This document shows, in pieces, positions 19,069 to 20,066 of a stretch of DNA of 40,038 nt. A model generated the notes under the pieces. That model searched no databases. It was not told the origin of the DNA and saw only the letters and a program-made list of their open reading frames with translations. The DNA lies in the NCBI GenBank assembly GCA_016234735.1, contig JACRAN010000089.1, positions 1 through 40,038 of the forward strand, written 5' to 3'. The translations under genes and the position numbers were made by a program. How positions within the stretch are numbered: the stretch's first letter is position 1; each line of letters opens with the position of its first letter. Origin of the DNA: Bacteroidota bacterium. GTDB lineage: Bacteria; Bacteroidota; Bacteroidia; Chitinophagales; Saprospiraceae.

Positions 19069-19098
19069 TATCTTTGATAGTATCAAATGATAGTATCA
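19069..19098 (+). promoter_or_regulatory. -7 box and double palindromic operator at the Fic gene start
   Basis: TATCTTTG at 19069-19076 matches the TAnnTTTG box. It overlaps the first of two identical 11-bp palindromes, TGATAGTATCA (arms TGATA/TATCA), at 19075-19085 and 19088-19098, with a 13-bp period. The second ends on the A of the ATG at 19098. A repressor bound here would cover the transcription and translation start. No TTG is well placed for the -33 element. Confidence 0.65.
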
Positions 19099-20066
19099 TG
19101 GCGCAACCACCCTTTGAAATAAGCAGTTTTATCTTAAAAAAAATTGCTTCCATTGCTGAAAAACTCGGCGAGGTCAACTCGGCACACCTGCACAAGCCGC
19201 CGCCTGAGCTTCGCAAGCGAAACCGCATCCGAACCATCGGGGCGACGCTTGCCATTGAGGGGAACACCCTGACAGAGGAGCAAATCACCGCCCTGCTTGA
19301 AAACAAGCGGGTAGTTGGCCCCCAAAAGGACATCCAGGAGGTACTCAACGCCATCAAGGTTTACGAAGAATTGAAACGCCTTGACCCTTTGAAAATCAGG
19401 TCGTTCCTGAAAGCACACGCCATGCTGATGACCAGTTTGATTCCCACCGCTGGAAAGTTAAGAACGGAAGCAGTGGGAATCGTTCGTGGTTCGGAAGTGG
19501 CGCACCTCGCCCCACCAGCTTGGAATGTGCAGCATTTGATGACTGAACTGTTCGGTTATTTGAAAAAAACAGGCGATCATGTTCTGATAAAAAGCTGTGT
19601 TTTTCATTATGAAATGGAGTTCATCCATCCGTTCATGGACGGGAACGGCAGGATGGGCAGGCTTTGGCAGACATTGATTTTGATGAACGAATACCCTGTG
19701 TTCGAGTTTTTGCCATTGGAAACCATCGTCAAAAAAAAGCAGGAACTGTACTACGGAGCGCTTGCCGAAAGCGACAGGGCGGGCAGTTCCACCAGGTTCA
19801 TCGAATTCATGCTTGAAGTGGTGGAAGAAGCGCTGGCCGATTTGCTTTCCATGCAAAGCCGTGTCATGAAGTCGGTGGACAGGGTTGAATATTTCAAATC
19901 GGTGGTGGGTGAAAACGGATTTTCAAGGCAGGATTACCTGCGCCATTTCAGGCAAATATCGCCAGTGACAGCCAGCCGTGACCTCGCAGAAGCAGTCGCA
20001 TCGGGCATCCTGGAACGATTGGGCGATAAACGCACGGCCACCTACAAGTACCACCATCCATCGTGA
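19098..20066 (+). CDS. Fic family protein (AMPylase) with N-terminal inhibitory motif
   Basis: The 322-residue protein holds an intact Fic motif HPFMDGNGRMGR at residues 177-188, with catalytic His177 and the phosphate-binding Asp/Gly/Asn/Gly/Arg. Fic enzymes transfer AMP from ATP to a target hydroxyl. Residues 50-55 (T-x-x-x-E-G, Glu54) match the inhibitory helix, here placed N-terminally (class II). The N-terminal domain of about 75 residues is the Fic_N type, and residues 260-322 form a small winged-helix-like C-terminal domain (FSRQDYLRHFRQISPVTASRDL), as in self-regulating Fic proteins. The ATG at 19098 overlaps the operator palindromes, which fits autoregulation. Target unknown. Confidence 0.93.
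   Translation: MAQPPFEISSFILKKIASIAEKLGEVNSAHLHKPPPELRKRNRIRTIGATLAIEGNTLTEEQITALLENKRVVGPQKDIQEVLNAIKVYEELKRLDPLKIRSFLKAHAMLMTSLIPTAGKLRTEAVGIVRGSEVAHLAPPAWNVQHLMTELFGYLKKTGDHVLIKSCVFHYEMEFIHPFMDGNGRMGRLWQTLILMNEYPVFEFLPLETIVKKKQELYYGALAESDRAGSSTRFIEFMLEVVEEALADLLSMQSRVMKSVDRVEYFKSVVGENGFSRQDYLRHFRQISPVTASRDLAEAVASGILERLGDKRTATYKYHHPS

What the first reader, a model, noticed from the sequence alone, without database searches (positions are those of the whole stretch)
19069..19100. Two identical 11-bp palindromes overlapping the Fic gene start
TGATAGTATCA occurs twice with a 13-bp period, the first overlapping the -7 box and the second ending on the ATG. The Fic protein has a C-terminal winged-helix-like domain, so direct autoregulation is plausible: the AMPylase could be its own repressor.
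Basis: partly seen in the sequence, partly recalled or inferred. Interest (0 to 1): 0.55.

Follow-up and report, generated by a model that had tools for sequence, protein, structure and literature searches.

The report
Fic enzyme reads its own operator
Two small DNA palindromes at the start of an AMP-transferring enzyme gene are almost certainly the docking site for the enzyme's own DNA-binding tail, so the enzyme probably switches its own gene down; the same site precedes related genes in many Bacteroidota and changes in step with a single amino acid in that tail.

Summary
In detail: TGATAGTATCA lies at 19075-19085 and 19088-19098 (period 13). The first copy shares two bases with a Bacteroidota -7 box (TATCTTTG), the second ends on the A of the Fic ATG. 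It is not chance: all 80 Fic relatives fetched from genome contigs carry the tandem operator upstream, 79 within 60 bp of the start, usually locked to a -7 box while its distance to the ATG varies.

The protein is a class II Fic AMPylase with a C-terminal winged helix. Across 146 relatives, recognition-helix residue 293 tracks base 5 of the half-site: Ser with TGATA (128), Thr with TGAT[G/C/T] (18). On a tree built without that domain both traits change six times, together. No other of 320 columns does this, and none of 56,920 simulated independent traits matched. The gene is solitary, and the relatives with another C-terminal domain lack the operator.

So this is very probably direct autoregulation, most simply repression at the promoter. 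Binding was not shown. Precedent: CccR of Yersinia pseudotuberculosis. New here: the compact tandem operator across many Bacteroidota and the natural one-residue specificity switch. Unexplained: tandem operators without a Fic, at least one a likely scar of a lost gene.

The parts
19069..19076 (+). -7 promoter box TATCTTTG (Bacteroidota TAnnTTTG; the consensus is recalled)
   Evidence: Sequence. TAnnTTTG ends on the first TG of the operator in 74 of 77 aligned loci and 121 of 147 in the wider set.
19075..19085 (.). operator palindrome 1, TGATAGTATCA
   Evidence: 24-bp tandem operator nearly invariant in 77 loci while flanks are not.
19088..19098 (.). operator palindrome 2, TGATAGTATCA, ends on the A of the Fic ATG
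   Evidence: same 13-bp period in relatives.
19098..20066 (+). Fic gene, 322 aa, class II Fic AMPylase with C-terminal winged helix
   Evidence: Pfam Fic PF02661 E 8.3e-19; PDB 4rgl full length Z 34.3; PADLOC SoFic model E 7.1e-46 over residues 8-318.
19245..19265 (+). inhibitory helix motif, residues 50-56 (TLAIEGN; S/TxxxE[G/N])
   Evidence: E54 in 146 of 147 rows, G55 in 147 of 147; motif definition from PMC9755527.
19626..19661 (+). Fic catalytic motif HPFMDGNGRMGR, residues 177-188
   Evidence: H177, P178, F179, D181, G182, G184, R185, R188 in 147 of 147 rows.
19872..20051 (+). C-terminal winged helix-turn-helix, residues 259-318; recognition helix 289-301, wing strands 305-308 and 315-318
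   Evidence: AlphaFold2 model, mean pLDDT 83.8.
19974..19976 (+). codon for Ser293, the recognition-helix residue that covaries with base 5 of the operator half-site

Best explanation
The two palindromes are a tandem operator read by the Fic protein's own C-terminal winged helix. The protein binds the 24 bp that cover the end of the -7 box and the presumed transcription start and blocks its own transcription, so that the potentially toxic AMPylase is kept at a low, self-limited level without a separate antitoxin-repressor. Shown here: the site, its conservation, its anchoring to the promoter, the fold of the tail, and the covariation of operator base 5 with residue 293. Inferred: direct binding, repression, and one protein dimer per 11-bp palindrome. 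Guess: that ATP, AMPylation or target engagement changes operator occupancy.
For: Conservation: of 80 relatives (58-81% identical) from genome contigs, 79 have the tandem operator within 60 bp upstream at 3 or fewer mismatches and the 80th (L031) an exact one 193 bp upstream. Anchoring: the operator starts on the TG of TAnnTTTG in 74 of 77 loci, while its distance to the ATG runs from overlap to roughly 40 bp. Covariation: of 147 full-length proteins with an operator, 128 have S293 and 2 or more A-type half-sites of 4 (122 have all 4), 18 have T293 and 0 or 1, and 1 has a gap there; per half-site S293 505 A to 7 other, T293 6 A to 66 other. Tree on residues 1-256 (84 rows): 6 changes each, 5 of 5 independent pairs concordant; only column of 320 that does so; 0 of 56,920 simulated independent traits match. 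A second residue, wing position 311, leans the same way (K in 115 of 128 S-type, 0 of 18 T-type). No conserved neighbour gene (at most 3 of 49 loci; small ORFs at most 2 of 63). The 17 full-length relatives with another C-terminal domain have no such operator. Precedent: CccR binds and represses its own promoter through a C-terminal HTH (PMC9755527).
Against: No binding or expression data. The residue-293 hypothesis was formed after looking at the data, the tree is a quick one, and five independent pairs can only reach p = 0.0625 in the sign test. One row (L213) is intermediate: S293 with 2 A-type half-sites of 4. 26 of 147 operators lack the exact TAnnTTTG spacing. Two full-length proteins of one genus (L225, L238) have no operator upstream; L225 has it downstream. 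Tandem operators also occur without an intact Fic beside them (16 loci read). Only one period, 13 bp, is seen, so the number of proteins bound cannot be derived.
Confidence: 0.85

Rival explanations
1. Another, unlinked regulator (for example a stress or phage-response repressor) binds the palindromes and controls the Fic gene.
For: Operators exist in genomes without a Fic of this family at the cut-off used, which could be sites of such a regulator.
Against: Operator base 5 covaries with a recognition-helix residue of the Fic itself, about 880 bp away. In this genome the tandem site occurs once. Of 16 orphan sites only 2 keep a -7 box in register, so they do not look like promoters of a regulon.
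Confidence: 0.07
2. The Fic protein binds the site but activates its own gene or uses DNA binding chiefly to tune its enzyme activity, as DNA stimulates CbFic2.
For: CbFic2 is stimulated by DNA through its C-terminal winged helix (PMC10628234, passages); ATP moves the C-terminal domain of Sofic (PMC12249575).
Against: The operator lies on the end of the -7 box and downstream of it, where a bound protein would be expected to block RNA polymerase; this rests on general knowledge of promoters, not on a test here.
Confidence: 0.06
3. The palindromes act in RNA (hairpin at the start codon) or through coding constraint on the first codons.
For: In the window the second palindrome touches the ATG.
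Against: The distance to the ATG varies from overlap to roughly 40 bp in relatives while the distance to the -7 box is fixed, and covariation with residue 293 is unexplained.
Confidence: 0.01
4. The tandem palindrome is part of a mobile cassette (an end repeat or target site) that carries the Fic gene, not primarily an operator.
For: Exact copies without Fic; a second copy just downstream of the Fic in L137 and the only copy downstream in L225.
Against: Only 1 of 160 rows had both an upstream and a downstream copy; orphan sites share no flanking sequence by eye; the copy before Fic sits in promoter register; base 5 follows the winged helix.
Confidence: 0.01

Closest known systems
CccR, Yersinia pseudotuberculosis (PMC9755527; passages and section 10 read)
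   Same: Class II Fic AMPylase with inhibitory helix and C-terminal HTH that binds inverted repeats at its own promoter and represses itself.
   Different: Footprinted site is AGATAATCAT-N26-ATGATAATCT near -35 and -10; here two compact TGATAnTATCA palindromes 13 bp apart on a Bacteroidota -7 box. CccR is a T6SS effector; no secretion link was tested here.
CbFic2, Coxiella burnetii (PMC10628234; passages read)
   Same: Class II Fic with C-terminal DeoR-type winged helix that binds DNA; full-length structural match (8cil).
   Different: No specific DNA site was known in the passages read; DNA changes AMPylation/deAMPylation; N-terminal DUF4172.
Sofic/SoFic (EcSofic, PMC12249575, abstract, Results and Discussion read; SoFic 3eqx, 3zcn)
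   Same: Two-domain toxic AMPylase; PADLOC SoFic model matches residues 8-318; structural match.
   Different: NCBIfam SoFic equivalog cut-off not reached, 53 of 550 bits; EcSofic has a 47-aa antitoxin AS1 downstream, no recurrent small ORF was found here; the paper's text has no 'HTH' or 'transcription'.
4rgl, Fic family protein Dde_2494 of Desulfovibrio (structure only)
   Same: Closest solved structure, E 2.7e-73 by sequence and Z 34.3 by fold.
   Different: No regulatory data seen.
GntR/FadR-type 11-bp operators (recalled, not tested)
   Same: Compact TxxTNNNAxxA-like palindromes read by winged helices.
   Different: Different protein family; a resemblance from memory only.

Membership tests
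Fic/Doc (Fido) AMPylase, class II | Fic motif HxFx[D/E]GNGRxxR | tested here: met
   HPFMDGNGRMGR in the window; motif residues in 147 of 147 rows except N183 in 146; Pfam PF02661.
Fic/Doc (Fido) AMPylase, class II | inhibitory helix (S/T)xxxE(G/N) N-terminal to the Fic motif | tested here: met
   T50-E54-G55 in the window; E54 in 146 of 147 rows.
Fic/Doc (Fido) AMPylase, class II | AMP transfer activity | not testable with these tools
   Needs the purified enzyme.
[quoted passage not shown]
   AlphaFold2 model residues 259-318; CbFic2 and SoFic full-length matches. Pfam gives no HTH match to the window protein.
Self-repressing Fic-HTH proteins (CccR-like) | inverted repeats at the gene's own promoter | tested here: met
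Self-repressing Fic-HTH proteins (CccR-like) | CccR site architecture (10-bp boxes 26 bp apart) | tested here: not met
   Two 11-bp palindromes with period 13 instead. It works like CccR; it is not claimed to be CccR.
Self-repressing Fic-HTH proteins (CccR-like) | direct binding and repression of the own promoter | not testable with these tools
   Only indirect: residue 293 / base 5 covariation.
Sofic anti-phage system | match to the PADLOC SoFic model | tested here: met
   E 7.1e-46, residues 8-318 of 322.
Sofic anti-phage system | NCBIfam SoFic equivalog cut-off | tested here: not met
   53 bits against a cut-off of 550.
Sofic anti-phage system | AS1-like small antitoxin gene downstream | tested here: inconclusive
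   No small ORF of 28 aa or more recurs in more than 2 of 63 loci within about 420 bp; a divergent small protein could be missed.
Type II toxin-antitoxin operon (Phd-Doc-like) | conserved partner gene next to the toxin | tested here: not met
   Most frequent neighbour in 3 of 49 loci; small ORFs 2 of 63.

The most novel reading that the evidence does not exclude
A one-protein toxin/repressor switch: the same polypeptide is the AMPylase and the sensor-repressor of its own gene, with catalytic state (ATP, self-AMPylation or target engagement, for example in phage infection) moving the winged helix off the tandem operator and so triggering a burst of toxin. It is spread over many Bacteroidota as a solitary, easily lost gene whose DNA specificity has switched about six times by a Ser/Thr change in one recognition-helix position.
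Probability: 0.25. Interest if true: 0.75.

Novelty: new variant of a known kind. Interest (0 to 1): 0.6.

Why it matters
How class II Fic proteins, including Sofic-type defence toxins, are kept in check is an open question: the Sofic paper read here says auto-inhibition does not fully silence the protein and that the C-terminal domain controls toxicity, without treating that domain as a DNA reader. This finding gives a specific DNA site, a specific protein residue and a natural set of paired variants with which the idea that the domain is an autorepressor can be tested in one gel-shift experiment. It also gives a search signature: the operator marks this Fic family in genomes, and appears to mark places where the gene was lost.

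Tried and rejected
Pattern search of viral contigs with the tandem operator: 0 matches; no sign of phage carriage, only that collection and exact pattern. Mobile-element end repeats: downstream copy in 1 of 160 rows, rejected as a general feature. A conserved partner regulator or antitoxin beside the gene: none recurring. A regular third palindrome one period (13 bp) upstream or downstream: at most 4 and 6 of 10 matching bases; a degenerate copy 12 bp upstream is seen by eye in flavobacterial loci and was not tested. Pfam HTH assignment: no match for the window protein; a weak HTH_DeoR match (E 0.15) for L006 only. The structural second look listed many Fic rows that cover residues 1-256 only, so the winged helix is supported mainly by 4rgl, 3zcn, 8cil and 7cb8 and by the model itself. 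Literature searches for an earlier report of this operator or of Fic autoregulation in Bacteroidota (open-licence PMC papers only): none seen in the listings; for the 20 titles listed of 27 were unrelated.

Rows dropped before counts: of 216 loci with a Fic hit, 178 remained after removing identical C-terminal 150 residues; 171 of these have more than 250 residues; 147 have an operator within -12 to 60 bp of the start. The 24 without: 17 with a different C-terminal domain (L114-L119, L121, L122, L126-L134), L031 (operator at 193 bp), L148 (masked upstream), L189, L221, L242 (contig ends), L225 and L238 (no operator upstream). The tree used 84 of 146 rows, after dropping rows 88% or more identical over residues 1-256. 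The profile used 77 of 81 loci (L028 and L032 too near a contig end, L031 no operator in range, L082 a duplicate). L213 was coded as A-type because it has 2 of 4 A half-sites.

Full report
What is there. The window holds TATCTTTG at 19069-19076, TGATAGTATCA at 19075-19085 and 19088-19098, and a Fic gene from ATG 19098 to stop 20066. The palindromes are 5+1+5 with an unpaired centre base and are 13 bp apart. The two sites are the only ones in the window within one mismatch (100 shuffles gave mean 0.11, largest 2). In the 4.88 Mb genome the single palindrome TGATANTATCA occurs at five places, two of them here, the backward control nowhere; none of the other three lies within 1.5 kb of a gene resembling this Fic.

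Conservation. A search of one genome per species gave 472 relatives of the Fic, of which the best 80 were kept (58-81% identical). Within 60 bp upstream of the start, 79 of 80 carry the tandem operator with at most three mismatches; the other (L031) has an exact one 193 bp upstream. Most of these records are named Bacteroidota; L009 and L012 are metagenome bins under other phyla. In a profile of 77 loci the 24 bp are nearly invariant, apart from the centre bases and spacer, and the flanks are not. In 74 of these 77 the operator's first TG is the end of a TAnnTTTG box; in the wider set of 147 it is 121. The distance to the ATG runs from overlap to roughly 40 bp. So the site is anchored to the promoter and not to the reading frame.

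Searching the other way, by pattern first: 12 of 395 Bacteroidota genomes hold an exact tandem operator, the backward control is in 0. Of these 12 sites, 7 lie directly before a full-length Fic, 1 (L095) before a decayed one next to an hsdM-like gene, and 4 (L086, L087, L090, L092) have none within 1.5 kb. In the order, 35 of 298 genomes have the Fic at E 1e-60, and 45 of 298 have the operator within two mismatches, against 1 for the control.

The protein. It is a class II Fic: inhibitory motif TLAIEGN (residues 50-56) and catalytic motif HPFMDGNGRMGR (177-188), both almost invariant in 147 rows. AlphaFold2 (mean pLDDT 83.8) gives a C-terminal winged helix: helices 259-270, 277-283 and 289-301, then a wing 305-318. 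The best structural match is 4rgl over the full length (Z 34.3); SoFic 3zcn and CbFic2 8cil also align over most of it. PADLOC's SoFic defence model matches residues 8-318 (E 7.1e-46), but the NCBIfam SoFic equivalog cut-off is not reached.

Does the Fic itself read the site? Some Saprospiraceae relatives have a different operator, TGATGCGATCA..TGATGGCATCA or TGATCTAATCA, and these have Thr in place of Ser at residue 293, the fifth residue of the modelled recognition helix. Counting the four half-sites TGATx of each operator: of 147 full-length proteins with an operator, 128 have S293 (4 A-type half-sites in 122, 3 in 5, 2 in 1), 18 have T293 (0 in 12, 1 in 6), and 1 has a gap there. Per half-site, S293 goes with 505 A to 7 others and T293 with 6 A to 66 others. 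A tree from residues 1-256 only, without the winged helix (84 rows under 88% identical, 15 with Thr), needs 6 changes for the residue and 6 for the operator; all 5 independent pairs on well-supported branches agree (sign test p 0.0625, the least that five pairs allow). Of 320 columns scanned, only 293 separates the operators fully (15 of 15 against 0 of 69); in the mixed clade of 20 rows the next best is 311, in the wing, where Lys is in 115 of 128 Ser-type and 0 of 18 Thr-type proteins. Of 56,920 simulated traits evolving independently on the tree with 10-20 positive tips, none matched the residue pattern. The hypothesis was formed on these same data, so this is strong but not an independent validation.

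Other support. No gene recurs beside the Fic (most frequent: 3 of 49 loci for ORFs of 90 aa or more; 2 of 63 for small ORFs), so there is no linked candidate regulator. The 17 full-length relatives that have a different C-terminal domain have no such operator. Of the ten plasmid stretches fetched (nine of them such relatives), six annotate an hsdS-type gene directly upstream of the Fic; the others do not. Several chromosomal ones follow sequence that reads like the end of hsdS (by eye).

How it most likely works. The protein binds the tandem palindromes, which overlap the end of the -7 box and the presumed start of transcription, and excludes RNA polymerase (inference). Each 11-bp palindrome may hold one dimer (inference; similar compact operators are recalled for GntR-type winged helices). 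The result would be a low, self-set amount of an enzyme that can be toxic. In CccR the same logic is shown by EMSA, footprint and promoter fusions, with a different site (PMC9755527). For Sofic, ATP binding moves the C-terminal domain (PMC12249575), and for CbFic2 DNA alters enzyme activity (PMC10628234), so coupling between enzyme state and DNA binding is plausible but untested.

What does not fit. Sixteen loci with a 0-1 mismatch tandem operator and no intact Fic beside them were read; 2 of 16 keep the -7 box in register. At least one looks like a scar: in a genome of the window's own genus (G596) the operator lies, without Fic and with TATCCATG in place of TATCTTTG, between the orthologues of the two genes that flank the window's Fic, while another genome of the genus (G826) has neither Fic nor operator there. 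Others have no visible remnant and remain unexplained. L137 has a second operator 34 bp after the Fic, and L225 has its only one downstream. L213 is intermediate in the covariation.

Novelty. Fic proteins as autorepressors are known in one case (CccR) and were suggested in general in 2009 (PMC2686095, passages). I found no report of this operator, its spread or the Ser/Thr switch in the listings, which cover open-licence papers only. I rate it a new variant of a known kind.

Noticed in passing
L098 (G000:C322:6472-7599), upstream of the ATG: Another class II Fic with a C-terminal HTH-like tail in the same genome has its own inverted repeat, GTTAAATA-N10-TATTTAAC, running into its -7 box; several relatives show AAAGTAAAAT/ATTTTACTTT repeats. 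Family-specific operators may be general for Fic-HTH genes.
   Followed up: partly
L101 (G000:C253), 20-37 bp before the ATG: A short Fic gene (253 aa) has TTGATACGATAATATCAA upstream, with half-sites like those of the window operator; cross-regulation was not tested.
   Followed up: no
L161, L162, L164, L169, L176, L188, L086, L087, L090, L092, L244, L245, L247: Tandem operators with 0-1 mismatch and no Fic beside them; L176 keeps a -7 box and lies 11 bp before a peptidase-like gene.
   Followed up: partly
L273 (G596:C26:75900-80500), operator at 410-433: Probable scar of a lost Fic: the operator remains at the orthologous place in the same genus, with a decayed -7 box.
   Followed up: yes
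L127, L128, L130, L131, L132, L134: Relatives with other C-terminal domains sit directly after hsdS-type genes, mostly inside type I restriction-modification operons, on plasmids of gammaproteobacteria.
   Followed up: partly
L137 (G469:C357), 34 bp after the Fic; L225 (G864), about 60 bp after the Fic: A tandem operator just downstream of the Fic gene, in L225 the only one seen. Unexplained.
   Followed up: no
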